Made by a program: the position numbers and the translations under genes. Under the pieces are notes generated by a model. The model ran no database searches and was not told the DNA's origin. It worked only from the letters and a program-made list of their open reading frames with translations. From Butyrivibrio sp. (GTDB lineage Bacteria > Bacillota > Clostridia > Lachnospirales > Lachnospiraceae): 33,790 nucleotides of DNA. Positions 1 through 17,224 of this stretch are shown here, piece after piece (the stretch's first letter is position 1; every line of letters begins with the position of its first letter). The stretch spans positions 1 to 33,790 of the forward strand of contig NZ_JAGAYD010000062.1 in the NCBI RefSeq assembly GCF_017940685.1. The letters run 5' to 3'.

Positions 1-23
1 GGCTTCATACAAAAACCTATAAA

Positions 24-62
24 CCTCGAATCGTGAAAAATCACGGTTCGGGGTATTTTTTT
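24..62 (+). terminator. Rho-independent terminator upstream of the hybrid secretion operon
   Basis: A 12-bp stem (24-35 with 42-53, one G-T wobble at each of two positions) closes a six-base loop and is followed by an A and seven T residues. It ends a transcript coming from the left of the window and insulates the operon starting at 163. No convincing promoter is visible between it and 163; only an AT-rich stretch at 54-77. Confidence 0.85.
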
Positions 63-162
63 GCAAATTTTTAAAATCCTGTTTCGGATTAGCAAGGCTC
101 ATGTCCCACATAACTTACGAAGGGCGAAGGATGTCCTACCAAAACGAAAGGAGAAAACGGAT

Positions 163-372
163 ATGGGCTATACACATGCAATCGACTCACTTAAAGGAGT
201 CCTCATCACACTGGGTACCTCAATCGGCGCAGTTATGCTGGTTTACGGCGGCATCAAGTTTGCAATGGCTTTTCGTCAGATGGATCAGCAGGGCGAGCAC
301 CAGGCAGTTTACTCGGTGGTAGCAGGCGGCGTGCTTCTTGGGCTTGGAGCACTCGTGGCAGTTTTAACTTAA
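163..372 (+). CDS. VirB2/Maff2-like small two-TM membrane protein
   Basis: A 69-residue protein made of two hydrophobic segments (about residues 10-32 and 46-68) separated by a short polar loop containing QMDQQGEHQ. The pattern of an LG-x-x-IG segment, a polar Gln-rich turn and a GGG-containing second helix is that of the Maff2/VirB2-type proteins that precede the TrbL-like gene in Clostridial conjugative elements. The start at 163 is chosen because AAAGGAG lies nine bases upstream; an in-frame extension to 61 has no ribosome site. In T4SS the equivalent protein is the pilin or channel subunit. It opens an operon with VirB6-like and PrgI-like genes, which supports the call; the sequence alone is short and low in information. 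Confidence 0.6.
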   Translation: MGYTHAIDSLKGVLITLGTSIGAVMLVYGGIKFAMAFRQMDQQGEHQAVYSVVAGGVLLGLGALVAVLT

Positions 373-387
373 AAAGGGAGGTTTGTG

Positions 388-1263
388 ATGGAAACAGTTG
401 TAAAAGCACTCTATAACGCTTCCTTCACTATCTGGAACACCCTGATGGGTCTTGCCATGACGCTATTTTCCACAAGTCCGACGAGTGCGGCAGGTGGCTC
501 ACCTTACGGAACGGTGCATTCGCTTTATAACAGCATCTCAGCAGCTACCATTCCCATAGCCACCTGCTTTTTCGTTATAGCGATCTATAAATCGGTGGTA
601 ACTTCTCCGCCGGAACAGCAGGCGCAGCGGTTTTTAATGGATGCGGTCAGATACTGCATCATCCTGTTTGTCGCAGCGCATCTGTGGGAAATCCTTGGCT
701 ACATCATAGAGTTTTCAGATGGTATTACATCAAGCCTTGGAACGGCAAGCGGCTACACCCTTTCGATGGGAGGAGATTTGGAGAGGATTATCCATGACTC
801 ATTAGAGCTTCCGGAGTTTGAACTTTCGGGAGAGTGGATAGGAAAACTCTTTGAAGCGCTTGGCTGCGCAGCACTTCTTTTAATCGGCGGGGTAGTCCTT
901 GTACTTGTGATGGTTGCCAGTTGCCTTTCCATTATCAGTTCTGCATTTCAGAGAATCTTAAAGCCACTTATCATCATGCCTTTTGCTGGGATAGCGGTAG
1001 CTATGGGAGCAGGAGGTCATGAGATTGGAAGATCAATGCTTCAGTTTTTAAAGACCTTCTTTGGCTTTTGCATCTCTGGAGCAATGATGGTGGTCATCAT
1101 AAAGACAGGCTGTACCTTATGTACAGACCTTGTAAGTGCAGGGCTTTCCGGTGGAAGTGATATTGAAAACTGCATCATGATGACGGTTCAGGCATCTATC
1201 ACACCGATTGTGATCGCAGGCCTTGTAAGAGGAACAGATTCGATTATAGCAAGGATGCTGTAG
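388..1263 (+). CDS. VirB6/TrbL-like conjugal transfer membrane protein (CD1112-like)
   Basis: A polytopic membrane protein of 291 residues with about six hydrophobic segments, notably residues 52-68, 88-105, 157-185, 192-210, 222-240 and 265-282. The segment with RILKPLIIMPFAGIAVAMG followed by a phenylalanine-rich FLKTFFGFCISGAMMVV helix matches the arrangement in VirB6/TrbL-like proteins of the CD1112 family, the inner-membrane core of the T4SS channel. GGGAGG at 376-381 fits ATG 388 better than GTG 385. It lies 15 bases after the VirB2-like gene and 11 before the PrgI-like gene, the same order as in Clostridial ICEs. The assignment to the TrbL superfamily is fairly firm; function here is inferred, because the VirB4 motor gene that normally follows is absent. 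Confidence 0.7.
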   Translation: METVVKALYNASFTIWNTLMGLAMTLFSTSPTSAAGGSPYGTVHSLYNSISAATIPIATCFFVIAIYKSVVTSPPEQQAQRFLMDAVRYCIILFVAAHLWEILGYIIEFSDGITSSLGTASGYTLSMGGDLERIIHDSLELPEFELSGEWIGKLFEALGCAALLLIGGVVLVLVMVASCLSIISSAFQRILKPLIIMPFAGIAVAMGAGGHEIGRSMLQFLKTFFGFCISGAMMVVIIKTGCTLCTDLVSAGLSGGSDIENCIMMTVQASITPIVIAGLVRGTDSIIARML

Positions 1264-1274
1264 GAGGTTTAGTT

Positions 1275-1832
1275 ATGGCACAGATGGAAAGAAACGTAAA
1301 TTTAGAGGAAATAGACTCAGATGCGCTCTTTGGGATTGATGCATTAAAAGGTCAGAGCATCTTGCAGAAGATCATCTTCTTTACCTGCCTTGGAGCAGGG
1401 ATTGTAGCAAATGTATGCATGCCGATGTTTCTTGGAACACCAAGAGCGGTATGTATCTTCATATTTCTTGGGCTTATCCTTATCGGCATTGCCTTTGGAT
1501 GTAACTATACCCAGGACATGACATACGGAAAGTACATGTACTGCTACTTTTTTAAGCCGGTAAAGACCTTAAGGTATGAATCTACAGAAGATATCGGGCG
1601 CATCAAGAAAAAGGCAGAAGAGCTTAAAAAGGAAGAGGAGCTGCTTCTTAGAAAGGAAAGGGAGGCAGATCCGAAAGCACAAAGAAAGCTCCTTATTAAG
1701 CTTCTTGCATTTGTTCTTGTCCTGGTAATAGCAGTCGTATCAGCACTTATCTATGTAAAGGCTGTGCGTCCTGTAAGTTACCACCATGAAGTAATAGAGG
1801 AAACGGAGGTAAACAGTGAACAGGGAAACTGA
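1275..1832 (+). CDS. PrgI/VirB3-like membrane protein with extra C-terminal TM
   Basis: A 185-residue protein with a short acidic N-terminus, a hairpin of two membrane helices (about 31-50 and 57-76), then the cytoplasmic motif FFKPVKTLRYES. That topology and motif resemble PrgI-family (VirB3-like) proteins, where the hairpin is followed by a P-x-x-L-x-[FY] segment. Unlike ordinary PrgI (roughly 100-130 aa) it continues with a Lys/Glu-rich coiled region (110-140) and a third membrane helix (about 143-163) with an acidic tail. Start follows GGAGG with seven bases spacing. The last 17 bases overlap the ATPase gene, indicating translational coupling. PrgI normally precedes VirB4; here it precedes a CpaF-type ATPase. 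The family call is inference from layout. Confidence 0.45.
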   Translation: MAQMERNVNLEEIDSDALFGIDALKGQSILQKIIFFTCLGAGIVANVCMPMFLGTPRAVCIFIFLGLILIGIAFGCNYTQDMTYGKYMYCYFFKPVKTLRYESTEDIGRIKKKAEELKKEEELLLRKEREADPKAQRKLLIKLLAFVLVLVIAVVSALIYVKAVRPVSYHHEVIEETEVNSEQGN

Positions 1833-3072
1833 ACTTAGAACCCTTGCCCTAACCCTTGTAGAAGAGTTCTACGAAAACCAGGGGCAGGGAGTCTTAAATA
1901 ACTTAAACAAAAGAACATACGGAAACCTTTCATCCGATAAGGATAAGGTTTTGCAGAGCATAAGGGTGAGCCTTTCTGATTTTCAGGATGAAAACGGAAA
2001 TGAGATGACAGAGGAAGATAAAGATATGGTGCTTTCCTTTGTAAATAAGGAAATCTGGGGATACGGGCTTATTGATGAGCTTATCCACGATAAGACCATA
2101 TCTGATATCAAGATCCATGATGCGAACCATATCAGAATTAAGCGTGAAGGAAAAAGGGAGAGCAGCACTATAACATTTCCGTCAGAGGAAAGCTATGAGA
2201 GGTTCGTAACAAGACTTTTAGAGCGAAACAAGGTAAATCTTGGTACGGCAAATGCTATCCAGACCTTTACCGATGCAGATCAGGATGACTTTATCCTGCG
2301 TCTTGCAGTCATAAGCGGTCTTTTAATTGTCGGAGGAAGTCCCTGCGTAGTCATTAGAAAGATTCCGAAGGATAAGTATTCTCTTAAGGAACTTGATGAG
2401 ATGGGAATGTTTTCAGACCAGGTGGCAAAGAGCCTGTCGGAGGAAGAGATTACGGACTTTTATATCTCAGAGGATAAGTCAGAGTTTGATATCCTCTTAC
2501 ACCGCATGATCAGGGGCAGAGGCATCCTTTTTACTGGAAAAGGTGCATCCGGTAAGACAACGCTTATGAATGCCTGTCTTGAAAAGATCCCTGAAACAGA
2601 TTCTGTCATGATCTGTCAGGAGAATGCAGAGCTTTTTGACCTGCATCATCCGGATTTAATTGCCGCTCATGTCATGGTAAATGGCGGAGATAGTAAAGTC
2701 AGCTATAACCTTGGAGACCTTACAAGAGTAGCACTTCTTGTAGACCTTGACAGGGTAATCGTTGGAGAGGTTAAGGAAGGATCAGAAGCTGCCGGACTTT
2801 CAAAGGCTTCTATGACAGGACATAAGTGCTGGACATCTGTACACGGCGAAAGCTGTGAGATGGCAGTAGAAAAGATGGCAGATTATATCTCACAGGCAAC
2901 AGGCTATGGAAACAGGGAAGCATTAAAGCAGCTTCTTGGTTTTGAGTATGTGGTGCATCTTAGGAATTTCCGTGTGGATGAAATCGTAAGGATCATGGAC
3001 TTTGACCATGAAAAAGGAAAGCTCGTACTTGAAAAGGTTTATCCCTTCACGAAGGAGAAGGAGGCAGTATGA
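1816..3072 (+). CDS. CpaF/TadA/VirB11-type secretion ATPase
   Basis: A 418-residue traffic ATPase of the GspE/VirB11 superfamily, closest in layout to CpaF/TadA, which powers pilin assembly at the cytoplasmic face. It has the N-terminal helical region with VNKEIWGYGLIDELI and DISDIKIHD-like PAS/N2 features (about 77-105), Walker A GKGASGKTT (about 241-249), the Asp-box region near residue 265 (MICQENAELF), Walker B-type VDLDRVIVGEVKEGSEA and the His box TGHKCWTSVHG. Length fits CpaF (400-480). GTG 1816 is chosen because GGAGG lies seven bases upstream; it overlaps the previous gene. The stop overlaps the following lipoprotein start (ATGA). It is the only ATPase in the operon, so it must drive whatever machine this is. 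Confidence 0.9.
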   Translation: MNRETELRTLALTLVEEFYENQGQGVLNNLNKRTYGNLSSDKDKVLQSIRVSLSDFQDENGNEMTEEDKDMVLSFVNKEIWGYGLIDELIHDKTISDIKIHDANHIRIKREGKRESSTITFPSEESYERFVTRLLERNKVNLGTANAIQTFTDADQDDFILRLAVISGLLIVGGSPCVVIRKIPKDKYSLKELDEMGMFSDQVAKSLSEEEITDFYISEDKSEFDILLHRMIRGRGILFTGKGASGKTTLMNACLEKIPETDSVMICQENAELFDLHHPDLIAAHVMVNGGDSKVSYNLGDLTRVALLVDLDRVIVGEVKEGSEAAGLSKASMTGHKCWTSVHGESCEMAVEKMADYISQATGYGNREALKQLLGFEYVVHLRNFRVDEIVRIMDFDHEKGKLVLEKVYPFTKEKEAV

Positions 3073-4187
3073 AAAACATAGTAGCGGCAGTACTTGCAAG
3101 CGTGCTCTCTTTTTCCTTAACGGGCTGCAGCGTGTTTCAGACTTTAGAGGGACAGACTGAGGATAAGCCAAATGAGTACTCAAATGTCTATGAGCTTTCG
3201 AGCGGCAAAGCTTATGTCTGGGAGCATGAGGGAGAAACAGATATCAGAAATGATTTATCTCAGGACAGGGTAGGAGATCCGGTATTCTTTGCCTGTCCAT
3301 TAGGGGATATCAACTTTAAGGGAGATGAACTGTCAGACATTGACCAGTATCCAAGAAGTATCTGGATCCCGTCAGATATAGATGATCAGATCCCCACTGT
3401 AACCAGTAAGAATGCCCTTATCTATATCTCAGATACTACAGTTCCGGAGGAGATCATCTTTGAAAGGTTTGCTGATTACGGGTGTTCCATCGGAGTATCA
3501 AACATGGAAGCTGATGGAGGCGGACACTATTTCATAACTTACGCAGAGACGGATGAAGATGATTACAAATACTACGTGGATATGAAATCAGAGGCGGCTC
3601 AGGTAACAGAGTTTGATACTATAGCTCGTCTTTACCTTGATAAGGTAGGCGGCATGGAAGTAAATGAGGAAACCGTATCAGATGGTGGAACCGTAATGAA
3701 TCTTGAAAAAGATAAATCCTATATCTGCGAGTTTTACACAGGCACCTTTTATCAGGACTTTAAGTTAAAAGCCAACATCCATAGCTTTGGAAAGCTTGAG
3801 CGGTTTGTCTGTCATGATTATGAGTTCTTACATGCCAACTGTATAAAGATTGAGATCCCGGATTGGTTTAAGTCAGGGTACTACTTCGTACAGGGCGTGG
3901 GGCTCTTTCGATATGTGACGGATGAAGACCTTTTAGCCTATAACGGGAAGGCGTATGATCCGGACATTAACTGGAATGATCCTATAAAGCAGTATGACGA
4001 GTACGGAGTCTGCATCTTTGATCCAAGCCTTGACATTAATTATGAAGATATAGAAAAGAATTCCGATCCGGGGCTTGATGAGTCAGAGATTGTAATAGGG
4101 GCAAGTCCTGAAGAAGAGGAAGAAACAGAAGGGAGTGAGATAGATGAATCCAGTGAGGATAGCACTTTGGATAGTGATAGCAATTAG
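3069..4187 (+). CDS. Large lipoprotein in the secretion operon
   Basis: A 372-residue protein with a lipoprotein signal peptide: MKNIV start, hydrophobic core and a lipobox LTGC with the acylated Cys at residue 20. The mature part is acidic, rich in Tyr and Asp, with no family I can name, and ends in a long Glu/Asp/Ser tail (about 335-372). The gene is coupled to the ATPase by an ATGA overlap and its last 44 bases overlap tadB-like. Anchored on the outer face of the single membrane, it is placed to act as an extracellular platform or chaperone for the hybrid machine. The role is inferred from position only. Confidence 0.75.
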   Translation: MKNIVAAVLASVLSFSLTGCSVFQTLEGQTEDKPNEYSNVYELSSGKAYVWEHEGETDIRNDLSQDRVGDPVFFACPLGDINFKGDELSDIDQYPRSIWIPSDIDDQIPTVTSKNALIYISDTTVPEEIIFERFADYGCSIGVSNMEADGGGHYFITYAETDEDDYKYYVDMKSEAAQVTEFDTIARLYLDKVGGMEVNEETVSDGGTVMNLEKDKSYICEFYTGTFYQDFKLKANIHSFGKLERFVCHDYEFLHANCIKIEIPDWFKSGYYFVQGVGLFRYVTDEDLLAYNGKAYDPDINWNDPIKQYDEYGVCIFDPSLDINYEDIEKNSDPGLDESEIVIGASPEEEEETEGSEIDESSEDSTLDSDSN

Positions 4188-5091
4188 TGTTTTTATTGTA
4201 AGCCTCATTATCCATAAGGAGTTTTTAAAGCGCAGCATCTTTCAGGAAATCTACGGAAAGTATAAAGGAAACCTTGAAAAGAAGGTAAAGGAAGAGAACT
4301 GGTTTGTATCAAAGTATGGAGTGATCGAAAACAGGAGCTTTCTATATAAGATTGACAGGCTGATCACCATGAGCGGACTAAAGAAGACATTTCCGCACCT
4401 GTCGGGAGAGGTCTTTATAGGGATATTGTTTATAAGCCTTATTACTACAGCGATTTTGGTATCTAACCTCGCAGGTAATGTATTCCTTGGACTTTTCGTT
4501 GCTCTTGCAGTAGTTACGGCAGAGTTTCTGGTGGTGATCTTTTTATCTGGAAGAACCTACAACCAGATCGAAGAGGATACGAGCCTTTTTATTTCAATAC
4601 TAAGTAACCATGCAAAAGGAAGCTCAGATATCGTAACCATTATGACAAGGACTCTTCCAAGTATGGACGGTCCCATAAGAGAGCTAATAAAGAAGTTTTT
4701 ACTTGATGCAGAAAAGACCGGGGATATCGACATTGCCTTTGATGTAATGAAGGAATCTGTAGATAACAGAACATTTCAGACCATCATTGTGAATCTTAAG
4801 AACTGTATGCACTATCAGGCAAATTATGAAGAGGTGTTACAGCAGATGATGAATCAGGTGGCGGAAGCCATGAGCGCAAGGGAAGAGAGAAAGAACATCC
4901 TCTTTTCCATGAAGATCACTCTTGTGTCTATATCCATCATGAGTGTCATTATTGTAGCTCTTATCGGAAAGGGTATCGGAGTAGATGTAAAGGCGATACT
5001 TACAGGAAACATGGCAGGCCAGTTCATTTTGTTTATCACAGGTCTTTTGTATCTGTTTGTAACCACAAAGCTCTTCGGAGTGGATAAGTAA
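4144..5091 (+). CDS. TadB-like inner-membrane platform protein (T2SS F domain)
   Basis: A 315-residue membrane protein with an N-terminal helix (6-23), a central pair (about 91-134), a cytoplasmic helical T2SSF domain (about 145-250), and two C-terminal helices (254-274, 288-308). This is the standard TadB layout. TadB and TadC form the platform on which the CpaF ATPase works. The start lies inside the lipoprotein gene in another frame and has GGGAGTGAG upstream. The following gene, TadC-like, starts ten bases after the stop. Sequence motifs in T2SSF are weak, so identification rests on topology plus gene order ATPase-TadB-TadC. Confidence 0.8.
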   Translation: MNPVRIALWIVIAISVFIVSLIIHKEFLKRSIFQEIYGKYKGNLEKKVKEENWFVSKYGVIENRSFLYKIDRLITMSGLKKTFPHLSGEVFIGILFISLITTAILVSNLAGNVFLGLFVALAVVTAEFLVVIFLSGRTYNQIEEDTSLFISILSNHAKGSSDIVTIMTRTLPSMDGPIRELIKKFLLDAEKTGDIDIAFDVMKESVDNRTFQTIIVNLKNCMHYQANYEEVLQQMMNQVAEAMSAREERKNILFSMKITLVSISIMSVIIVALIGKGIGVDVKAILTGNMAGQFILFITGLLYLFVTTKLFGVDK

Positions 5092-5101
5092 GGAGGAGAA
5101 G

Positions 5102-5944
5102 ATGATAGTAGGACTTTTATTATTTTTAATCTTTGCACTTGTCTTTACTACGATACAGACCCTTCTTCTTAGAAAAGAGGGATCAGATAGTAAGACCTAT
5201 GCAAAAGAGCAGCTTGAAAATCTTAAGAAAGGCAGGCACTTTCAGGAATTTGTCCTCAGAAAGCAAATAAAGCTTAAAAAGTACGGGGCAGATATTTTTG
5301 TAAGAGACGGAATCCTAGTGTCCCAGTGGTATCTGTATAAAGCGCTTTTTGCTTCTGTAGCGGGAGTGATCACCTTTTTACTATCTGTAAAGGTCTTTCA
5401 TGCAGATGCAGGGTACATTATCACAGCGGCAGTTACGGCTTTTGCCTGGTTTTTCCTTGATCTGTATCTGTCTTTGGAAAACAAGCAGAGTAATGAAGCC
5501 ATGATGCCGGATATCTGCGAGATGAGTAGATCTGTTCTTTACGGAAAGCGTGGTGGTCAGTACATCATTGATGCCATAAAGGATGCCTGCATAGTTGTTG
5601 AGAACAAGCGCCTTAAGATGGGAATGATAAAGCTTCGAAGTAACCTCGATGCAGGACGCAGTCTTGAGGAATCCTTAAACGAGTTTGAGATGTGCTTTAC
5701 AACACCTGAGATTGCAAGCTTTTGTACAGTGATTAAGTCCCTGCAGACAACAGGGCATGTGGAGGAAGCTCTTAAGACTTTAGAGAATAACATCGAGCGT
5801 GGTCAGGCAGGTGTAAATAAACGAAAGTGCATCGTCCTTGAAAATAAAACGATGGTGTATGTGCTCCTTATAGCATTTGATCTTCTGATCATGATTTTAT
5901 ACTGCATCATCATGAAGCTACTTGATATGCAGATCGCATTTTAG
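5102..5944 (+). CDS. TadC-like inner-membrane platform protein (T2SS F domain)
   Basis: A 280-residue protein with an N-terminal membrane helix (1-18), two central helices (about 76-108), a cytoplasmic T2SSF helical bundle containing MPDICEMSRSVLYGKRGG (about 140-157) and LRSNLDAGRSLEESL (about 179-193), and a C-terminal helix (253-275). It is the usual partner of TadB in the Tad/type IVc platform. GGAGG lies five bases upstream of ATG 5102. Length is at the short end for TadC. Together with the ATPase and TadB homologue it completes a Tad-type motor and platform inside an operon that began with T4SS genes. Confidence 0.8.
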   Translation: MIVGLLLFLIFALVFTTIQTLLLRKEGSDSKTYAKEQLENLKKGRHFQEFVLRKQIKLKKYGADIFVRDGILVSQWYLYKALFASVAGVITFLLSVKVFHADAGYIITAAVTAFAWFFLDLYLSLENKQSNEAMMPDICEMSRSVLYGKRGGQYIIDAIKDACIVVENKRLKMGMIKLRSNLDAGRSLEESLNEFEMCFTTPEIASFCTVIKSLQTTGHVEEALKTLENNIERGQAGVNKRKCIVLENKTMVYVLLIAFDLLIMILYCIIMKLLDMQIAF

Positions 5945-5957
5945 GAAGGGAGGCTCT

Positions 5958-6377
5958 ATGAGAAATCTTTTATTAAAGAAGAAAAAGGCATCAGTTATTG
6001 AAAACGTGCTTGTAAGTCTTATCAGCATCGTTATGGTCTGTGCCTTTCTTGTGATCGTTTTTGGAGCCTTTTCTTCCATTAATGATAAGTGGTCTATGAG
6101 ACAGGCAGCAAGAGAGACGCTTCTTATCATGGAAACGGAAGGGTATCTAAAGCCGGAGGATGAACAGGCACTCATCCATGAGCTTGAAGGTTATGGGCTA
6201 TACAATATTAGTCTTTCCGGCACCACAACAAGTGAAGTGGACTATGGAGAGAGGATATACCTTAAGATCACGGGAACCTATGATGACAATATTCTCGCAT
6301 TTGCAGGTGGTATCTCGAAGGTGGCTCATCACCCGACAACCATAACGATCCATAGGCAGACCACGGCAAAGCAGTAA
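5958..6377 (+). CDS. TadE/DUF4320-like pseudopilin
   Basis: A 139-residue protein with a basic N-terminus (RNLLLKKKKAS), the sequence ASVIENVLVSLISIV in which a Glu follows the start of the hydrophobic helix, and a soluble C-terminal domain of about 100 residues. This is the organisation of TadE-type minor pilins and of the DUF4320 proteins found in Clostridial conjugative elements. The helix runs about residues 12-37. GGGAGG lies six bases before ATG 5958; a longer reading frame from 5922 would overlap tadC without a ribosome site. A prepilin peptidase would have to cut it; the only one in the window is encoded far away at 27195. Confidence 0.6.
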   Translation: MRNLLLKKKKASVIENVLVSLISIVMVCAFLVIVFGAFSSINDKWSMRQAARETLLIMETEGYLKPEDEQALIHELEGYGLYNISLSGTTTSEVDYGERIYLKITGTYDDNILAFAGGISKVAHHPTTITIHRQTTAKQ

Positions 6378-6386
6378 GGAGGGCGT

Positions 6387-6965
6387 ATGAAAAAGAAGAA
6401 GGAAGCGACCGGTGCAATCGGATATGTGATGCTCTTTACAATGGCAATTATCATGGTCATCATTACGCTCTTTATGCTGGCAAGCAGCAAATTACAGACC
6501 ATCCAGCATGATGTGGATGATGCACTGGCAGACTCAGTACTTGCAGCTCTTGTTGCAGATGATATTTACTACTTTGAGACCTGGGAAGGAACAGGTACGG
6601 CGGTAGTAAGATTCAGGGATCTTGATGAAAGTTATAGGCTCTACAGAGACTGCATGAAGGATGCCATTGAGTCTAAGAATGACTTTTACGGAAATATCCG
6701 CTATCCCACATTTATCTGTTATGAAGTAGAAGATGGGGAAGTAACCATCACAACCTTTAATGAGTCAGGCGGAAGGAGCCAGACGGTAGGGGCACTTGGA
6801 GATGTAAAAACCCCGACAGGCGAAACGGTAAAAGAAACAAGTGCCTATGGGAAGGTCACATTTGACTTACAGAGCCTTATCGGAGGCGAGCCCATAGGAA
6901 AGAGTAGAGACTTGTATTGTACTTTGGAAATCAATAGTGAAGAAAGTTACGAGGAGGCAAAATAA
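6387..6965 (+). CDS. Second pseudopilin-like protein
   Basis: A 192-residue protein starting with a Lys/Glu-rich patch (KKKKEATGAIGYVM), one hydrophobic helix (about 11-29), then a soluble, largely acidic domain. It looks like a TadE/TadF-type minor pilin, but I cannot place it in a named family. It begins ten bases after the previous gene with GGAGG in front, and its stop shares one base with the next start (TAATG), so it is translationally coupled to the SAF-domain gene. Clostridial ICEs carry comparable single-helix proteins beside DUF4320. Confidence 0.5.
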   Translation: MKKKKEATGAIGYVMLFTMAIIMVIITLFMLASSKLQTIQHDVDDALADSVLAALVADDIYYFETWEGTGTAVVRFRDLDESYRLYRDCMKDAIESKNDFYGNIRYPTFICYEVEDGEVTITTFNESGGRSQTVGALGDVKTPTGETVKETSAYGKVTFDLQSLIGGEPIGKSRDLYCTLEINSEESYEEAK

Positions 6966-7675
6966 TGTTTGAGAAAAAGGTTAATGTAAAGGAAGCCCCT
7001 AAGCAGGGTAAAAAGGAAAAGAAAGAAAAAAGGCAGGTAAAAGCACCGGGGATTGTAAAGATCGTACTTGTGCCGCTCCTTATTACAGTAGTACTTGTGG
7101 CAGCTATCTATCTTGTGATGGATAAGATGACAGAGCGTGAGACCCTTCTTAAGAATGTGGTTGTAGCCAGTCAGGATGTGAGGGTAAACGCCTATATCAC
7201 ACCGGATGAAGTTGATCAGTATTTTGATGTGATCCAGGTGGACGGGAACGCGGTAGCTGAGAATGCCTATACGTCTCTTAAGGACTTAAAAGAAAAGGGC
7301 TTTTATACCAATATCCCCATTGGAAGCGGTCAGATCCTTTACTCCGGTAATATCAAGCCCACAGATGCAAGGCTTGATAAATATAAGTCCGGGTATGAGG
7401 TGACAAGTATTGCAGTTTCAAACTTCGATAAGGGCGTAAACGGAAAGCTAAGAGAGGGAGCAATCATTGATGTATATGCAGTTGACCCTGCAACAGACGA
7501 ACTCACTCTATATGTGGAAGATGTATACGTGGCAGGAGCATTTGATTCCTCCGGCAATGAGCTTACCACAGAGGAAGGTGTAGCCCAGAGCTTTACCGTC
7601 TATGTAAAGGCTGCCGAGATCGAAAACATGAACCGTGCGATCAACTATGGCGAGATCCATATTTATCAAAAATAA
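6965..7675 (+). CDS. SAF-domain CpaB/RcpC-like pilus assembly protein
   Basis: A 236-residue protein with a Lys-rich cytoplasmic N-terminus (1-28), one membrane helix (about 31-52) and an extracytoplasmic domain. The domain starts with LLKNVVVASQDVRVNAYITPDEV (two pieces: NVVVASQDVRVNAYIT and the following Asp-Glu-Val), which is the SAF/CpaB signature, and continues with SVAVSNFDKGVNGKL-like and REGAIIDVYAVD segments (about 145-170) typical of the CpaB/RcpC C-terminal half. CpaB is the periplasmic or extracytoplasmic Tad subunit. In most Tad loci it comes first; here it is last in the operon. A hairpin follows about 50 bases after the stop. Confidence 0.75.
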   Translation: MFEKKVNVKEAPKQGKKEKKEKRQVKAPGIVKIVLVPLLITVVLVAAIYLVMDKMTERETLLKNVVVASQDVRVNAYITPDEVDQYFDVIQVDGNAVAENAYTSLKDLKEKGFYTNIPIGSGQILYSGNIKPTDARLDKYKSGYEVTSIAVSNFDKGVNGKLREGAIIDVYAVDPATDELTLYVEDVYVAGAFDSSGNELTTEEGVAQSFTVYVKAAEIENMNRAINYGEIHIYQK

Positions 7676-7684
7676 AATTGGTAT

Positions 7685-7711
7685 TAAGAAATAATAGGAT
7701 GTTGCCGATAT
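7685..7711 (+). promoter_or_regulatory. Sigma-28 (FliA/SigD) type promoter candidate
   Basis: TAAG at 7685-7688 and GCCGATAT at 7704-7711 are separated by 15 bases. The Gram-positive flagellar sigma factor consensus is TAAA-N15-GCCGATAT, so the -10 is a full match and the -35 matches three of four. It lies 107 bases before the first cargo-like gene (7818). Chance occurrence of a full eight-base -10 at the right spacing is low, but there is a hairpin between it and the gene. Confidence 0.55.
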
Positions 7712-7726
7712 ATCAAATAGCGATGG

Positions 7727-7776
7727 AAGCGTGTTTTTCAATGGATTGAAGTTCGTTGAAAAATGCGCTTTTCCTT
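7727..7776 (+). terminator. Long hairpin after the hybrid operon, terminator or leader structure
   Basis: A 15-bp stem (7727-7741 with 7756-7770, two G-T pairs) closes a 14-base loop and is followed by TTCCTTTT. The weak U-tract suggests a moderate terminator for the operon ending at 7675. If the sigma-28 promoter at 7685-7711 is used, the same hairpin would instead sit in the 5' leader of the 7818 gene and could attenuate it. Confidence 0.55.
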
Positions 7777-7817
7777 TTGAAGGAAACAAACGACGGCTCG
7801 TAATAAGGAGAAGCCCT

Positions 7818-8393
7818 ATGAATATATTTCTTAACCCGAATCATGAAGAGCAAAAAAGGATTACAACATCCAAAGAGCTTGCCCAATATATCTTAGAAAG
7901 CGGAAATGATATAGAAAAGATGTCAGAGGAAGACCGCACTAAGATGGATGCTAAGATAACTGCCAAGCTTCAATCTGGTAAAAAGCTGTCACAGAAAGAG
8001 ATGGACTATCTAAGAAAAACCAATCCCATCATGTACGCACATGCTTTGAGAGTACAGAGAATGGCAGAGGCTGTAGAGGAACAGCTAAAGCACGCAAAGA
8101 GCAAGGAAGAAGCTGACCAGATTATATCTTCTGCTCTAAGTGGCATATCAAAAAATGATCCTGATAGGGAGTATATCTTTGCTGCAGTCAATCGTATTTC
8201 GACAGAATTTCATAAATCAGGTGCTTATGAGAAACTCCCGAATACAGTTGAAGAGGGAGATAAAGAGGGAAAAGAAAGCGGAGACGTCTTTTCTGATGCG
8301 GAAGATGATGAGGGCGAAGGTTTTGACCTTAAGAACTGGAGCCCACTTAGAGAAGTATATGACAGCCTGCCCACATTTTCTGTAGGAGCGTAA
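7818..8393 (+). CDS. Soluble helical protein, cargo cluster member 1
   Basis: A 191-residue, highly charged and helical protein with no signal peptide or membrane helix. Residues about 55-90 contain LQSGKKLSQKEMDYLRKTNP followed by an Ala/Gln-rich helix; I recall related segments in uncharacterised Lachnospiraceae proteins but no assigned function. The same spacing of residues recurs in the protein encoded at 11545. The C-terminus is acidic (EDDEGEGFDLKNW). AAGGAG lies seven bases upstream of ATG 7818; the in-frame extension to 7731 runs through the hairpin. A sigma-28-type promoter lies upstream, suggesting co-regulation with motility genes. Confidence 0.75.
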   Translation: MNIFLNPNHEEQKRITTSKELAQYILESGNDIEKMSEEDRTKMDAKITAKLQSGKKLSQKEMDYLRKTNPIMYAHALRVQRMAEAVEEQLKHAKSKEEADQIISSALSGISKNDPDREYIFAAVNRISTEFHKSGAYEKLPNTVEEGDKEGKESGDVFSDAEDDEGEGFDLKNWSPLREVYDSLPTFSVGA

Positions 8394-8458
8394 ATGTAAG
8401 TAGAGTATCCGGGACGCGTTGCAGTAGTAACCAGGTTATTCGCTTGAAAGGATAGTTT

Positions 8459-9028
8459 ATGAATGTAATCGGAATAGGAAACTACGGATTAATTAACAGT
8501 AATTACGCTAAGAAAACAAGCACAGATGAAGTACAGGTTTCAACTTCGTTTGCTGATATTGTGCAGAATAAGTTTAATACAGCGGAAGGAACCATGAGCG
8601 TTGGAGAATCGCAGACTAAGGTGTATGCTGACAAGCCATTATGGCATTGGCACGATGGCCCGTTTGGATATAGTGCTGAGGTATACAAGAACGAAGGGGC
8701 CGCTTCAGAATATCTGGTAAAACTAAAATATGACAACGGAAAGGAAGAAGAACGGGTAGTTGATGCAGAAAAGGTAAACGCTTCTTCCTGTAATATGGTT
8801 GACCTGTCTGTAAGAATGTATCATTTGGAGGCGGAGGGTAAAATTGAGAATCCTGCGCCCGATTTGATAGTGGCACATTTATACTTGCAACACAGGATGC
8901 CTAATGCAAATGAGAATACCATTGTTGATTACAGAAGCTGGTTTGAGCAACAGCTTGAATTAGAACTGAATAATGATAGGAATTGGAAGAACATCAATAG
9001 ATGGACGAATCTTTTAGATTATCTGTAA
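8459..9028 (+). CDS. Soluble protein, cargo cluster member 2
   Basis: A 189-residue protein starting MNVIGIGNYGLINSNY with a Ser/Thr/Asn-rich, probably disordered N-terminus (1-45) and no cleavable signal. The middle contains YDNGKEEERVVDAEKVNA then a Met/Leu/Tyr helix, which resembles residues in the next protein (EVRVNDVDPKNATEIEMFAL). The C-terminal part is Trp-, Asn- and Leu-rich (NNDRNWKNINRWTNLLDYL). GAAAGGA lies six bases before ATG. No named family is recognised. It sits 65 bases after member 1 with no terminator between, so probably in the same transcript. Confidence 0.7.
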   Translation: MNVIGIGNYGLINSNYAKKTSTDEVQVSTSFADIVQNKFNTAEGTMSVGESQTKVYADKPLWHWHDGPFGYSAEVYKNEGAASEYLVKLKYDNGKEEERVVDAEKVNASSCNMVDLSVRMYHLEAEGKIENPAPDLIVAHLYLQHRMPNANENTIVDYRSWFEQQLELELNNDRNWKNINRWTNLLDYL

Positions 9029-9041
9029 AAAATGCTATTTA

Positions 9042-9093
9042 CCGCTCGGACCTTTCCGGGGAGCGGTGCAGCTCTGACTGACAGATGAGCTGC
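9042..9093 (+). other. Tandem hairpins between cargo genes 2 and 3
   Basis: CCGCTC (9042-9047) pairs with GAGCGG (9061-9066), and GCAGCTC (9068-9074) pairs with GAGCTGC (9087-9093). Neither is followed by a U-tract, so they look like RNA processing or stability elements between adjacent reading frames rather than terminators. The second ends just before the AAGGAGG ribosome site of the next gene and could shade it. Confidence 0.5.
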
Positions 9094-9108
9094 GGAAAGG
9101 AGGAGACT

Positions 9109-10497
9109 ATGCCATTTGCAGTACAAACAAGTTATAGTCAAACATATCAGTATGGAAGATACAATTCTAAACCAGGTTATACAGATACTGCTTTTGACAC
9201 AGAATTTATGGGGAAAGCGACTTCCCGAACCACTTCATCTAGTGATGGGAAGAATATCGGTATCATGACAATAGGAAGCAGAGGGTTCATTGCCGAATAT
9301 GCCGGTTCTTCGACGGAGCAGGATCCGATCATAAAGGTTGGAGATTATGAGGTTCGAGTGAATGATGTTGACCCGAAGAATGCTACCGAGATAGAGATGT
9401 TCGCATTGACATCTTATATGGATGATAAGGGTCTCACAGATAATACAGGCATGAAGACCTTTAATAAGATGAGAGCATATTCATCTCAGGCTGAATATAA
9501 CGGATTTTGTAATGGAATCGCTGATCCGATGGCAGCATGGTCACAAAATCGTGATTGGACTGCTATCTTACAGAATGCTAAAGAGACCTATCTTGCTATG
9601 CCCAAGGCTTATGAACATGGGTTGAAATGTCAGAATATCATAGACAGTCTGGTATCATGGAGTGATTTCAGAACATATTATAGTAATAGTACTTCAAAAA
9701 CCGTAGATCTGTCGGATGCTATAAAGATGTTTGAAGATGCCAATAAGATATCAGCTCAGGAACTGAAAGAAGAAAAAGACTGGCGCGATATGTCCGCTGA
9801 AGAATGGGATAAGATGCTTGAGGGTGTTGATAATTATATTGACGCTTTTAAGGAACGTTTGCGTGAAATGAAGGAAATGCAGGACGAGGCTGCTCAAAAG
9901 GCGGCTATGGAAGCTGATCCGGAGATGAGGACAATTGCAGCATCATCTGCAGCTTTAGCTGTAGCAACGGGTTTTGATGCCGGAGCATCTTCTGAAACTG
10001 AGGAATCCGGTGAAGTTTCTGCGAAAGACGGCGTTGACCATGAAAAGAACTGGACAAAGAAGCTTAAGACCGATGATCAGACTGTTCTTATGACCGCAAA
10101 GGAAGCGCAGAAGATGGAGAGCAATGCTCTGTCAAAGTATCAGGAGATTCAGCTTGTTGGTACTACATCTGTGGGAGTGTCTTACACAAGTGCCGCTACA
10201 GAGTGCGCATCTGTTGATGAGGACGATAAAAAGGAAAAGGTCTGGACAATCACCTGTATAGGAGCAGACGGGATCAGCAGTAAAAAATGCCAGAACGGTA
10301 AAGTCCTTTCAAGCTGGGAACTAAAATACGAGTCGCCCGAAGATGCGAAGCGAGTTGATGACTTAATTGCAAGCTTCAAGAACGATGAGAACCTCAGATT
10401 TGCTGGAATGAAAGACTTTTGGACTAAGTTTTTAGGCGGAAACATATCCAAGGATGACCTTACATTTACAGGCGACGCCTGGGCTTGGATAAGGTAA
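9109..10497 (+). CDS. Large soluble protein, cargo cluster member 3
   Basis: A 462-residue protein without signal peptide. The N-terminal 45 residues are rich in Tyr, Ser, Thr, Gln and Asn (MPFAVQTSYSQTYQYGRYNS). A first globular part (about 75-200) contains GDYEVRVNDVDPKNATEIEM; a charged helical middle (about 225-320) is rich in Glu, Lys, Met and Ala; a C-terminal domain (about 370-462) contains CIGADGIS, CQNGKV and DENLRFAGMKDFWTKFLGG. I recall this architecture from several unnamed Lachnospiraceae proteins. AAGGAGG is six bases before ATG 9109; the eight-codon upstream extension overlaps the hairpin. It ends in a strong terminator, closing a three-gene transcript. Function unknown. Confidence 0.75.
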   Translation: MPFAVQTSYSQTYQYGRYNSKPGYTDTAFDTEFMGKATSRTTSSSDGKNIGIMTIGSRGFIAEYAGSSTEQDPIIKVGDYEVRVNDVDPKNATEIEMFALTSYMDDKGLTDNTGMKTFNKMRAYSSQAEYNGFCNGIADPMAAWSQNRDWTAILQNAKETYLAMPKAYEHGLKCQNIIDSLVSWSDFRTYYSNSTSKTVDLSDAIKMFEDANKISAQELKEEKDWRDMSAEEWDKMLEGVDNYIDAFKERLREMKEMQDEAAQKAAMEADPEMRTIAASSAALAVATGFDAGASSETEESGEVSAKDGVDHEKNWTKKLKTDDQTVLMTAKEAQKMESNALSKYQEIQLVGTTSVGVSYTSAATECASVDEDDKKEKVWTITCIGADGISSKKCQNGKVLSSWELKYESPEDAKRVDDLIASFKNDENLRFAGMKDFWTKFLGGNISKDDLTFTGDAWAWIR

Positions 10498-10516
10498 AAT
10501 GATAATTCTTTTCAAA

Positions 10517-10551
10517 AAGCCCCGGAAATTTTGTTTTCGGGGTTAATTTTT
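10517..10551 (+). terminator. Rho-independent terminator after cargo gene 3
   Basis: CCCCG (10520-10524) plus GAAA pairs with TTTTCGGGG (10534-10542) around a short AT loop, with flanking A and T runs and TTAATTTTT downstream. It ends the transcript of the 7818-10497 group. Its tail overlaps the -35 region of the next promoter candidate. Confidence 0.85.
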
Positions 10552-10570
10552 GTAAAGCTCTCTCCGATAA
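10544..10570 (+). promoter_or_regulatory. Second sigma-28 type promoter candidate
   Basis: TAAT (10544-10547), 15 bases, then TCCGATAA (10563-10570). Against TAAA-N15-GCCGATAA this matches three of four and seven of eight. It lies 80 bases upstream of the 10650 gene and directly after a terminator, exactly where a promoter for the second cargo group is needed. Together with the similar site at 7685 it suggests both groups share a flagellar-type sigma factor. Confidence 0.5.
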
Positions 10571-10649
10571 ATAGATAGAAGATGACTATAACTGTCTTTT
10601 TGTGCATTGAAACGGATTTCAGTGTTTATCTACAAGGAGGTAGAGTGAT

Positions 10650-11531
10650 ATGGCAGGTATTAGTGGTGTTATTTCTGCATATAGGCAGCCAGATCAGATA
10701 AATAGAGGGTCGGAGCGTACATACGAATCGACTTCTTCTAAAGTTGCGTCAAGCAATTCTTCTAAGGAGAGCCAGACTTCTAAAGTTGAAACAAAAGGCT
10801 TTACTCCTATCGATACTAAAAGTTCCCTTGTACCCAAAGCAACCGAATATGGGAATACTATCGGTGATGTTAAGCTTTCCGATAAGGCAAAAGATTATTA
10901 CAACCAGCTAAAGGGAAAGTTTCATAACATGGAGTTTATTGCTGTCAGCAAGGATATGAAAGCCCAGGTTCAGGCTAATGCGGCGGCTTATGGTAACGCA
11001 AATAAGATGGTTGTTCTTATTGACGAGGAAAAGCTTGAACGCATGGCTACGGATGAGTCCTTCAGGAAGAAATTTGAAGGGATTATCGCTATGTCACAGA
11101 CGAAGATGGCTGAGGCAAAGAACAGTCTTACAAGTAGCGGAGCAAGTGTTAAGAACTTTGGTATGTCGGTAGATTCAAATGGTAAAGAGAACTTCTTTGC
11201 TACGGTAGAAAAATCTCAGGATCTACAGAAAAAACGCATAGAAAAGAAAGCGGCAGAAAAGAAGGCTGCAAAGCAGCAGGAAAAGAAGAAAGCAGAGAAG
11301 AAAGCCCAGGAAGAGCGGATTCAGAAAACAAAGGATAAAAAGGCAGAAAAGACAGACTCAGATAAAGAGGATGCTGAGGCTATTGATAACGAGGAATATA
11401 TTACATTTGAAGCTAATTCTGTGGATGAACTCCTCTTTAAAGTTCAGAATTACTCATACAATAGTGCTGCTGGCAGAGTTATGACGGAGTCGGAGCGCAT
11501 GGTTGGATCGAAGTTTGATATCAAGGGATAA
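10650..11531 (+). CDS. DUF6033-like protein, cargo cluster member 4
   Basis: A 293-residue soluble protein beginning MAGISGVISAYRQPDQ with a Ser/Thr/Lys-rich disordered N-terminus (1-70). Residues about 74-190 (LSDKAKDYYNQLKGKF, MVVLIDEEKLERMATDE, MSQTKMAEAKNSL) match what I remember of the DUF6033 family of Clostridia. A long Lys/Glu/Ala coiled-coil follows (about 190-235), then a short C-terminal domain with FEANSVDELLFKVQNYSYN. No signal peptide or membrane helix. ACAAGGAGG precedes ATG 10650. The downstream gene starts 13 bases after the stop. Function of the family is not established; the N-terminal SGV motif is shared with the next two genes. Confidence 0.75.
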   Translation: MAGISGVISAYRQPDQINRGSERTYESTSSKVASSNSSKESQTSKVETKGFTPIDTKSSLVPKATEYGNTIGDVKLSDKAKDYYNQLKGKFHNMEFIAVSKDMKAQVQANAAAYGNANKMVVLIDEEKLERMATDESFRKKFEGIIAMSQTKMAEAKNSLTSSGASVKNFGMSVDSNGKENFFATVEKSQDLQKKRIEKKAAEKKAAKQQEKKKAEKKAQEERIQKTKDKKAEKTDSDKEDAEAIDNEEYITFEANSVDELLFKVQNYSYNSAAGRVMTESERMVGSKFDIKG

Positions 11532-11544
11532 CGGAGGAATAAGA

Positions 11545-12189
11545 ATGAGTGTTTCAGGTGTTGATTATTCAAGCTTTTTACATACATACGAAGCATACCG
11601 CATTCCCAAGGGGACAAAGGTACAAAATCAGGCTGGAGAAGAGGTCGTTTTATCGAATGAAGAGGATACCTTGGTTCTTACAGAGAAGGCAAGCAGACAA
11701 CTTGTAAAGGATCGAAAAGATTATGTTGGAATGCTTCAGACTCAGGCTGAAATGGCTGCTGAAAAGACTCAGGAAGCTGCTACTGAAAGAATAGCAAAAG
11801 ATCAGGCAAAGGCTATGGCTGTATTTCGTAGTCTGGCAAATGGAGATAATGTTCCCTCGTCAGATGAGCGTAGATTAATGGATTATGACTCTAAGTTATA
11901 TCAAGCTGCAAAGGCTGCACAGGCTATGGCTCAGATGGCGAAGAAAAGAGCGGAATCAAAAGAGTCTGAATGGGATGAACGCGAGGAAGAGGAACAGAGG
12001 AAAAAAGAGAAAATACTTGGAGATGAGTCTAACGAAGCCGCTTTAGCAATAGGAAAAGGATGCCATGAGTTTAACGAGGCTATGAAAGAGAATATTGTAG
12101 AGGTAGATTCTTCAGATATTGACTTCTCATCGTTTAAAACCATGAGCCTTGGAGGCGTTACAGGCGCATATATTGATCTTTCGCTATAG
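11545..12189 (+). CDS. Soluble coiled-coil protein, cargo cluster member 5
   Basis: A 214-residue protein beginning MSVSGVDYSSFLHTYEAYR, mostly helical and charged, no signal peptide. Residues about 75-135 include Gln/Ala/Lys-rich helices and ANGDNVPSSDERRLMDYDSK followed by LYQAAKAAQAM, whose spacing parallels the 7818 protein. Residues 135-160 are almost entirely Glu, Lys and Arg. GGAGG lies seven bases upstream of ATG 11545, while a longer in-frame start at 11503 overlaps the previous gene without a ribosome site. Translationally close to the DUF6033-like gene, so likely one operon. I recall similar unnamed Clostridial proteins; function unknown. Confidence 0.7.
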   Translation: MSVSGVDYSSFLHTYEAYRIPKGTKVQNQAGEEVVLSNEEDTLVLTEKASRQLVKDRKDYVGMLQTQAEMAAEKTQEAATERIAKDQAKAMAVFRSLANGDNVPSSDERRLMDYDSKLYQAAKAAQAMAQMAKKRAESKESEWDEREEEEQRKKEKILGDESNEAALAIGKGCHEFNEAMKENIVEVDSSDIDFSSFKTMSLGGVTGAYIDLSL

Positions 12190-12314
12190 ACAAAAATAGA
12201 TGGAAGTCAGAAAGCAAGGGATGATTTCCTTGAAAGGATACTAAGAAAGTCACGTATGTTTATAGCAAATCTTTAATAGAAATATGTAATCATTTAGTAA
12301 AGGAGGCTGATTTC

Positions 12315-13163: not shown

Positions 13164-13191
13164 GGATATAAGGTTATATTTATCTAGATAT

Positions 13192-13217
13192 AAAGAGCTC
13201 CGGAAACGGGGCTCTTT
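13192..13217 (+). terminator. Rho-independent terminator after cargo gene 6
   Basis: AAAGAGCTCCG (13192-13202 region) pairs with CGGGGCTCTTT around a GAAA-type loop and runs into TTTT. It closes the cargo-gene region. Confidence 0.8.
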
Positions 13218-13239
13218 TGATGCGTAAAAGAATATCGTT

Positions 13240-13281
13240 TGTTATAATAAACCTTAAGAAACGTGATGATTTAAATATAAT
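13240..13281 (+). promoter_or_regulatory. Sigma-A promoter region orphaned by IS66
   Basis: An extended -10 element TGTTATAAT (13240-13248) and a second TATAAT (13276-13281) lie between the terminator and the IS66 insertion point at 13292/13293. No good -35 is present for either. Before the insertion these would have driven the lipoprotein gene whose leader resumes at 16186; now a 2.9-kb element lies between. Confidence 0.4.
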
Positions 13282-13284
13282 GCT

Positions 13285-13292
13285 GAAACGGG
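13285..13292 (+). repeat. IS66 target site duplication, left copy
   Basis: GAAACGGG immediately left of the left inverted repeat; an identical copy lies at 16178-16185 immediately right of the right inverted repeat. Eight bases is the normal duplication length for IS66-family elements. Confidence 0.95.
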
Positions 13293-13425
13293 GTAAATGC
13301 TCCAACGTAGGTACCCTCCCACTCGCCTCGCTGATCTGAGATAATCTCCGTGGTATGTCCACACTCCGAAAACTATGGCCATAGTTTTCATAGTTCCCGG
13401 AGTATCAACTTTAGGAGGTTATCTT

Positions 13426-14185: not shown

Positions 14186-14248
14186 GTATTGTGCAAAACG
14201 TAGAAAATAATTTGCCACCAAATGGCTGAAATACTGAGCCAATGGGTA

Positions 14249-14395: not shown

Positions 14396-14434
14396 TAAGG
14401 CGAATGCCCGAAAGTCGCATAACAGCGCTGTATT

Positions 14435-14443
14435 TGCTATAAT
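14435..14443 (+). promoter_or_regulatory. Extended -10 promoter for tnpC
   Basis: TGCTATAAT, a TGn-extended perfect -10, 27 bases upstream of the tnpC start. No clear -35 is visible at 16-18 bases. It would give tnpC a transcript independent of tnpAB and downstream of the hairpins. Confidence 0.5.
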
Positions 14444-17213: not shown

Positions 17214-17224
17214 GAGGTGGTTTG

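What the first reader, a model, noticed from the sequence alone, without database searches (positions are those of the whole stretch)
163..7675. Hybrid operon: T4SS channel genes joined to a Tad-type motor
Maff2/VirB2-like, VirB6/TrbL-like and PrgI/VirB3-like genes appear in the order they have in Clostridial ICEs. Instead of VirB4 the next gene is a CpaF/TadA ATPase, followed by a lipoprotein, TadB, TadC, two pseudopilins and a SAF/CpaB-like protein. Genes overlap or are spaced by about 15 bases or less, so they form one operon. A single machine combining a TrbL-type channel with a Tad platform would be new to me. It could be a pilus, a DNA-uptake or DNA-transfer device, or a protein exporter.
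Basis: partly seen in the sequence, partly recalled or inferred. Interest (0 to 1): 0.85.

Follow-up and report, generated by a model that had tools for sequence, protein, structure and literature searches.

The report
Conjugative element with built-in Tad pilus
A mobile DNA element of rumen bacteria carries, in one run of genes, both parts of a DNA-transfer channel and the motor and filament parts of a Tad pilus, which suggests that some Gram-positive bacteria use such a pilus when they mate.

Summary
In detail: ten tightly packed genes (163-7675) join a type IV secretion (T4SS) block (VirB2-, VirB6/TrbL-, PrgI/VirB3-like) to a Tad block (TadA, lipoprotein, TadB, TadC, two pilin-like proteins, CpaB). 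9 of 15 related loci carry all ten. They end a ~66-74 kb integrative conjugative element. In the window's own genome, contig C280 carries VirB4, NlpC/P60 and VirD4 and ends in the window's first ~140 bases; C281 carries recombinases, relaxase, a second TadA-type ATPase and a prepilin peptidase. So VirB4 is not replaced: Tad is added to a complete T4SS. TadB and the peptidase, 17-32 kb apart, come and go together (both in 9 of 14 genomes, neither in 4, one discordant); the second ATPase stays with the T4SS (12 of 14). Similar pairings occur on Exiguobacterium, Vallitalea, Mycoplasmatota and Cutibacterium plasmids. Best reading: conjugation with an element-encoded Tad pilus, the second ATPase working like the VirB11 that a 2025 review says Gram-positive systems universally lack. 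In four of four examined contigs with the recombinase trio, the element's left end lies inside the host's own Tad pilin gene. Function is inferred, not shown.

The parts
19..165 (+). leader: terminator-like hairpin (23-54) and bipartite promoter-like motif (from 85); a second copy lies before the pil73-VirB4 operon of the same element
   Evidence: 87% over 150 bp to the pil73 leader in G051 and G123; hairpin scan; motif scan; both copies on contig C280
163..372 (+). p1, VirB2/pilin-like protein (69 aa)
   Evidence: hhalign 95.0%, E 3.7e-8
388..1263 (+). p2, VirB6/TrbL-like membrane protein (291 aa)
   Evidence: hhalign 97.7%, E 1.4e-12; profile hits to conventional elements, best 4e-18
1275..1832 (+). 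p3, PrgI/VirB3-like (185 aa)
   Evidence: hhalign 90.7%, E 1.3e-6 with PrgI set
1816..3072 (+). p4, TadA/CpaF-type ATPase; Walker A GKGASGKT invariant in 5 of 5 rows
   Evidence: PF00437 1.1e-19; CpaF chains best in PDB, a type II secretion ATPase and VirB11 2gza next; alignment
3069..4187 (+). p5, lipoprotein, kept with the T4SS genes where Tad is missing
   Evidence: alignment; present without p4 in L005, L007, L010, L011 and L071
4144..5091 (+). p6, TadB-like platform protein
   Evidence: PF00482 1.1e-4; genome surveys
5102..5944 (+). p7, TadC-like platform protein
   Evidence: PF00482 5.8e-6
5958..6377 (+). p8, DUF4320 pilin-like protein
   Evidence: PF14208 5.1e-5; basic N-terminus then hydrophobic stretch
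6387..6965 (+). p9, second pilin-like protein
   Evidence: position and N-terminal pattern; conserved
6965..7675 (+). p10, CpaB/RcpC-like protein
   Evidence: TIGR03177 1.5e-5, under cut-off
7676..23589 (.). cargo between p10 and p22: DUF6033 proteins, ImmA/IrrE-HTH protein, insertion-sequence genes (names IS66 and IS30 recalled, not from a call)
23590..23624 (+). bipartite promoter-like motif before p22
23637..24665 (+). p22, right-end gene, function unknown
   Evidence: relatives in G051, G123, G120, G121; no family
24835..24847 (.). right end of the element (junction about 24840)
   Evidence: empty-site comparison L148/L149
24841..29472 (+). chromosomal flank: 3' half of the interrupted flp pilin gene, then host Tad genes (DUF5702, TadE, prepilin peptidase, TadE, DUF6382-FHA); not part of the element

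Best explanation
The finding is the transfer region of an integrative conjugative element. Recombinases excise it, a MobA/VirD2-type relaxase nicks it, and VirD4 and VirB4 with VirB6-, VirB3- and VirB2-like proteins, an NlpC/P60 wall hydrolase and a lipoprotein form the DNA channel. A separable Tad module (TadA, TadB, TadC, two pilin-like proteins, CpaB and, in the other gene cluster, its own prepilin peptidase) builds a pilus or pseudopilus that brings donor and recipient together. A second TadA-type ATPase that stays with the T4SS core would do the job that VirB11 does in Gram-negative systems. Shown here: gene content, order, conservation, homology, modular gain and loss, the empty insertion site. 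Inferred: that the pilus is made, that it serves mating, and the role of the second ATPase.
For: Gene order of the element compared in four genomes, with Pfam support for relaxase, VirB4, VirD4, NlpC/P60. The window's genome has all these pieces. All ten genes in 9 of 15 related loci. In the order survey the 5 of 392 genomes with a strong TadB match (E < 1e-100) are the 5 with a strong p2 match (E < 1e-130), the two within 3 kb. TadB and prepilin peptidase: both in 9 of 14, neither in 4 of 14, one discordant fragmented MAG; the two aspartates expected to be catalytic are invariant in 5 of 5 rows. Second ATPase in 12 of 14, among them 3 of the 4 Tad-less genomes. A shared motif precedes eight transcription units of the G051 element, T4SS and Tad included. 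Conventional Lachnospiraceae elements: none of TadA, TadB, TadC, DUF4320, CpaB in 5 of 5 stretches, two of which are near-copies. Precedent: type IV pili of IncI plasmids aid, and that of PAPI-1 is essential for, transfer (PMC12857230, passages).
Against: No experiment. No certain major pilin: the candidate pil73 did not match Flp profiles and was not seen in the Tad-bearing G454. The prepilin peptidase scores below Pfam's cut-off, or not at all, in 5 of 5. L008, L009 and L017 share an in-frame stop in TadB, and G120 has one in NlpC too, so the module may decay. Four of 14 genomes keep T4SS genes without Tad, so Tad is not needed for every such element; one of them, G126, also has no relaxase match. 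The second ATPase does not group with VirB11 in the tree, so its VirB11-like role is analogy only; it was not found in two MAGs. The shared motif was not found in G120 or G121 beyond chance-like matches.
Confidence: 0.66

Rival explanations
1. One composite machine: the Tad motor and platform work inside the T4SS channel, a pseudopilus pushing or clearing the path through the thick wall, rather than a separate mating pilus.
For: p4 lies between the PrgI-like p3 and the T4SS-core lipoprotein p5, the other Tad genes follow p5; in L123 Tad genes lie between PrgI and VirB4; no Flp-like gene sits between TadC and DUF4320 as it does in three stand-alone loci; shared motif.
Against: T4SS sets with p5 but without TadB exist in 4 of 14 genomes, so the channel does not need Tad; an Flp-like candidate pil73 exists in 7 genomes.
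Confidence: 0.2
2. Hitch-hiking adhesin: the Tad module is cargo that helps the host stick to plant fibre or cells and has nothing to do with DNA transfer.
For: Tad is a common adhesion system (established knowledge; PMC5696575 passages); stand-alone Tad loci of the same TadA clade exist (L067, L068, L070, L078); the module is missing from some elements.
Against: Tad genes are inside the transfer operon, not in the variable cargo slots; the association is conserved at about 40-85% amino-acid identity and the T4SS label needs 6 gains or losses on the TadA tree, 5 forced, so the pairing arose or was lost repeatedly; motif shared with recombinase and second-ATPase operons.
Confidence: 0.22
3. Protein exporter or DNA-uptake device without conjugation.
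For: T2SS-family parts can export proteins or take up DNA; passages of PMC5696575 cite a Tad locus needed for transformation in Micrococcus.
Against: Relaxase, NikA-like protein, VirD4, recombinases and a defined insertion site are all present.
Confidence: 0.05

Closest known systems
IncI plasmids (R64) and PAPI-1: T4SS proteins plus type IV pilus
   Same: a conjugative element that carries both transfer ATPases/channel and a type IV filament system that aids or is needed for mating (PMC12857230, passages)
   Different: those are Gram-negative with a different pilus type in its own cluster; here the pilus is Tad-type, in Lachnospiraceae, and its genes run on from T4SS genes
Cutibacterium acnes tad plasmids
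   Same: Gram-positive plasmid with a tad locus next to VirB4, FtsK-like and TcpC-like genes; authors call it possibly conjugative (PMC5696575, passages); neighbourhood seen
   Different: T4SS-like and tad genes are divergent, tad was read mainly as an adhesin, its TadA lies elsewhere in the tree on a very long branch
Conventional Lachnospiraceae ICE T4SS (VirD4, VirB2/pilin-like, TrbL-like, PrgI, VirB4; the names Maff2 and CD1112 come from the finding)
   Same: homologous VirD4, VirB2-, VirB6-, PrgI- and VirB4-like genes
   Different: none of TadA, TadB, TadC, DUF4320 or CpaB in 5 of 5 stretches examined
Plasmids pEYLC1.2 (Exiguobacterium), pVpro (Vallitalea), pCY360 (Butyrivibrio proteoclasticus)
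   Same: T4SS genes next to Tad-type genes in one direction
   Different: TadZ-like genes and other orders in the first two; pCY360 has TadA-, SAF- and DUF4320-like genes but no TadB or TadC match
VirB11 ATPases
   Same: same T2SSE superfamily; VirB11 2gza is among the PDB matches of p4
   Different: p4 and the second ATPase form a clade with Tad-type ATPases apart from VirB11 and TrbB

Membership tests
integrative and conjugative element | site-specific recombinase and a defined empty site | tested here: met
   trio of Phage_integrase proteins at the left end; empty site in G006 and G022 with 4-6 bp overlap
integrative and conjugative element | relaxase, VirD4 and VirB4 | tested here: met
   PF03432 7.3e-22, PF02534 3e-42, PF19044 3.6e-17 in G123; in the window's genome on C281 and C280
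integrative and conjugative element | demonstrated excision and transfer | not testable with these tools
   sporadic presence (p2 in 3 of 117 genomes, the window's own and one weak match among them) and near-copies in different genera are only indirect
Gram-positive T4SS | VirB4, VirD4, VirB6, VirB3/PrgI, wall hydrolase | tested here: met
Gram-positive T4SS | no VirB11 homologue (as stated in PMC12857230) | tested here: inconclusive
   two TadA/VirB11-superfamily ATPases are present, but by the tree they are not VirB11 proper
Gram-positive T4SS | VirB8-like protein | not tested
Tad pilus system | TadA, TadB, TadC | tested here: met
   TadB match of the window protein is under Pfam's cut-off
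Tad pilus system | prepilin peptidase | tested here: met
   element protein with invariant D21 and D78 of a GxGD motif in 5 of 5 rows; hhalign to host peptidase 61.9%, E 7.6e-5; Pfam below cut-off
Tad pilus system | Flp-type major pilin | tested here: inconclusive
   pil73 candidate; hhalign against Flp sets 0.2-18.6%
Tad pilus system | TadZ/CpaE localisation ATPase | not tested
   the TadZ profile was not run on this element
VirB11 family | descent from VirB11 | tested here: not met
   IQ-TREE of 60 rows; VirB11 and TrbB rows are long branches, so their own place is unsure
Tn554/RIT-like recombinase trio | three adjacent tyrosine recombinases on one strand | tested here: met
   G051 #12-14, L090 #15-17; the family name is recalled, not from a call

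The most novel reading that the evidence does not exclude
A class of Gram-positive conjugation systems runs on two paralogous Tad-type ATPases: one energises the T4SS channel in the place of VirB11, the other drives a Tad filament that is physically coupled to that channel; and one branch of these elements integrates into the host's own flp pilin gene, switching off the host Tad pilus and replacing it with the element's.
Probability: 0.2. Interest if true: 0.92.

Novelty: new variant of a known kind. Interest (0 to 1): 0.77.

Why it matters
How Gram-positive donors make and hold contact with recipients is poorly known; a current review states that their T4SSs universally lack VirB11 homologues (PMC12857230, passage), and another paper that they lack major pilin genes and rely on adhesins (PMC12102498, passage). 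An element with a VirB11-superfamily ATPase in its T4SS core and a Tad filament module gives a concrete, testable exception, with natural Tad-minus relatives as controls. Pairings on plasmids of Bacilli, Clostridia, Mycoplasmatota and Actinomycetota suggest that it has arisen more than once. The insertion of one branch into the host's Tad pilin gene bears on competition between element and host pili.

Tried and rejected
Tad ATPase as replacement for VirB4: rejected, VirB4 is on C280, 99.8% identical to that of P. ruminis. Second ATPase as a true VirB11: not supported by the tree. pil73 as T4SS-core pilin: first noted so, corrected after the G830 match proved to be a 59-aa degenerate piece. p22 as a sigma factor: no support in PDB or Pfam. 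p2 structure: AlphaFold mean pLDDT 47.5, unusable. p5 structure: 68.3 for one of five models, the other four 31-35; its fold search never ran. pCY360 at first looked like an ATPase alone; a wider stretch showed T4SS genes and a second ATPase. Rfam on the leader: one chance-level U4 match, E 0.9. PHROGs: nothing useful. No base rate was computed for T4SS genes near random loci, so 7 of 45 DUF4320 neighbourhoods with T4SS genes is a count, not an enrichment.
Full report
OBSERVATION. The ten ORFs at 163-7675 are real, co-directional and packed with gaps of -44 to 15 bases. p4 is a TadA/CpaF ATPase, p6 and p7 T2SSF-like platform proteins, p8 DUF4320-like, p10 CpaB-like; p6, p8 and p10 score under the curated cut-offs. 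p1-p3 matched no T4SS family there, but profile-profile comparison ties them to VirB2-like, VirB6/TrbL-like and PrgI proteins of conventional elements (95.0, 97.7 and 90.7%; the four mismatched pairs run scored 0.2-6.5%). In 4 of 5 conventional Lachnospiraceae stretches the relatives of p1 and p2 sit between VirD4 and VirB4; in the fifth only the p2 relative, PrgI and VirB4 matched.

CONTEXT. The window is contig C172 from its first base. A genome scan gave 15 related loci: 9 carry all ten genes (three of them with TadB split by a stop), 4 carry p1, p2, p3 and p5 without p4, one contig ends soon after p3, one holds a fragment of about 37 residues. Relatives show what precedes p1: a ~73-aa pilin-like protein (pil73), a ~330-aa protein, VirB4, NlpC/P60, a 482-aa protein, VirD4. 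Further upstream are a relaxase, a second TadA-type ATPase (28% identical to p4), a GxGD prepilin peptidase, and 556-, 322- and 481-aa proteins. In the window's genome these are on C281 (relaxase 32183-34195, ATPase 34204-35478, peptidase 35475-35963) and on C280, a 9413-base contig with pil73, VirB4, NlpC, 482-aa and VirD4 at 94-99.8% to P. ruminis, whose last ~140 bases repeat the start of the window. The assembly probably broke at a leader that exists twice in the element.

SITE. Genomes G006 and G022 of the same genus lack the element: their sequence matches C281 up to 2523-2525 on one side and the window from 24841 on the other, with 4-6 bases of overlap. The interrupted gene encodes a Flp-type pilin inside the host's chromosomal Tad locus, split after the codons for VILIIV (MILILV in P. 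ruminis). The left junction lies there in G000, G051, G123 and G010, i.e. in 4 of 4 examined contigs that bear the recombinase trio; the right junction was seen in the first three. In G010, a 76% complete MAG, p2 was not found. Of 41 relatives searched, only G000 and G010 had the trio (G051 and G123 were not in that set). Elements in G120 and G121 have other integrases and none of the host Tad query proteins matched nearby, apart from the element's own ATPases. By these coordinates the element is about 66.1 kb in G051 and 73.9 kb in G123.

MODULARITY. Whole-genome searches of 14 carriers: TadB in 10 of 14, element prepilin peptidase in 9 of 14. Both absent in G126, G830, G831, G293; both present in nine; G832, a fragmented MAG, has TadB but no peptidase hit. 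Where both were placed on one contig they are 17-32 kb apart, so loss of one adjacent block does not explain the pattern. The carriers are related, so the 14 are not independent. The second ATPase is present in 12 of 14, among them 3 of the 4 Tad-less genomes, and was not found in the MAGs G126 and G832. In G293 it lies directly before the ~330-aa-type protein and VirB4. Distances between 7 elements (of 10 TadB carriers; two near-copies and one fragment left out) correlate between T4SS and Tad proteins at r 0.72-0.98, as expected of one inherited unit; this does not prove contact.

REGULATION. A bipartite motif, CGGATTA-N9/10-TGTCCCACA, is found at 8 places in the 80-kb G051 region (search allowing 3 changes; the 8 have 0-2), each on the coding strand within about 160 bases before a transcription unit: recombinases, NikA-like/458-aa, RadC/ArdC side, DUF5688, second ATPase, pil73-VirB4, p1-p10 and p22 (gene starts). 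Twenty single-base shuffles gave 0.75 on average. G123 shows the same eight plus two 3-change matches, one outside the element; C281 and C172 of G000 show seven of the eight plus two 3-change matches, one outside the element (C280 was not scanned). Matches with 1-2 changes also lie before the second ATPase in G118 and G830 and before p1 in L005. In G120, G121, L014, L165, L166 and the G454 stretches only chance-like matches were found, so the motif is not common to the whole family. The regulator is unknown.

RECURRENCE. p4-like ATPases occur in 1511 plasmid records. Of the six monoderm rows among the 30 listed I opened five. T4SS-type genes lie beside Tad genes on pEYLC1.2, pVpro, a Mycoplasmatota plasmid and a C. 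acnes plasmid; pCY360 has VirB4, PrgI, VirD4 beside TadA-, SAF- and DUF4320-like genes but gave no TadB or TadC match. G253, of the same genus label as pVpro's host, has the pVpro order. Among 391 Clostridia genomes 40 have DUF4320; 45 of 46 places (all but the window's) were fetched, and 7 of 45 had VirB4, VirD4, PrgI or relaxase within the stretch of up to 20 kb; L123 runs relaxase, VirD4, VirB2, PrgI, TadA, TadB, TadC, VirB4 with unnamed genes between. Some stretches were cut by contig ends, so 7 is a lower bound. In a 60-row TadA tree, p4, the second ATPase, stand-alone Tad loci of one Lachnospiraceae genus, pCY360 and Vallitalea form one clade (100/97) away from a host CpaF, VirB11 and TrbB; the T4SS label (22 rows, judged within the fetched stretches) needs 6 changes, at least 5 forced by well-supported branches. 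Several branches are very long.

MECHANISM. Proposed: recombinases excise the element; relaxase and VirD4 deliver the strand to a channel of VirB4, VirB6-, VirB3- and VirB2-like parts, opened by the NlpC/P60 hydrolase; the second ATPase assists as VirB11 does; a Tad filament, processed by the element's own peptidase and driven by p4, pulls or holds the recipient. Only the parts list, order, modularity and insertion site are shown. The composite-machine reading and the pure-adhesin reading remain open.

LITERATURE. [quoted passage not shown] 'Tad' does not occur as a whole word in its main text. PMC12102498 (passages) says Gram-positive T4SS classes lack major pilin genes. PMC5696575 (12 of 18 places) reports tad plus conjugation genes on C. 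acnes plasmids. PMC6668835 (12 of 15 places) covers Tad evolution; the passages seen mention no T4SS-Tad hybrid. Apart from the C. acnes paper, the listings of searches showed no title on a Tad module inside a Gram-positive T4SS operon, and one search found no paper with DUF4320. Searches listed only 25 of 273, 12 of 53 and 10 of 59 papers, and the library lacks most subscription papers and all bioRxiv preprints.

Noticed in passing
window 24841 and C281:2524 (L033); L148, L149, L168: The element is inserted inside the host's own Tad pilin gene flp; left junction there in 4 of 4 examined contigs with the recombinase trio.
   Followed up: yes
window 85 and 23590; eight places in G051 C49: Bipartite promoter-like motif CGGATTA-N9/10-TGTCCCACA before eight transcription units of the G051 element, p22 included; not found in the more distant elements.
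   Followed up: partly
window 19-165; G051 45387-45531; C280 ends (L171): 150-base leader with a terminator-like hairpin occurs twice in the element; one stem pair differs on both sides between the copies; the assembly probably broke there.
   Followed up: partly
L008, L009, L017; G120 C15: Elements of Lachnobacterium bovis, Eubacterium oxidoreducens and Lachnospira multipara LB2003 share the same in-frame stop in TadB; G120 has one in NlpC too. Suggests very recent transfer of a possibly decaying copy.
   Followed up: partly
L147, L092 (pCY360): The 361-kb Butyrivibrio proteoclasticus plasmid pCY360 has VirB4, PrgI, VirD4 beside DUF4320-, SAF- and TadA-like genes, and a second TadA-type ATPase about 18 kb away.
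   Followed up: partly
window 10650-13163; L165 15443-16724: DUF6033 proteins of unknown function are cargo on two of these elements.
   Followed up: no
L018 6098-6511: A piece of p2 of about 37 residues is fused into a DUF5702 gene in a MAG contig; perhaps an assembly chimera.
   Followed up: no
L067, L068, L070, L078: Stand-alone Tad loci of the same TadA clade; three of the four stretches show a very large neighbouring protein of 1347-1528 aa (L067, L068, L078).
   Followed up: no
G000:C281:8248-10224: The search row for the middle recombinase in the window's genome flags two stops within the matched stretch, although a 631-aa ORF is open; whether the gene is intact was not examined.
   Followed up: no
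window 13375-16122 and 21348-22739: Genes that look like IS66-type and IS30-type transposases (recalled, no family search run) lie in the cargo region of the window copy.
   Followed up: no
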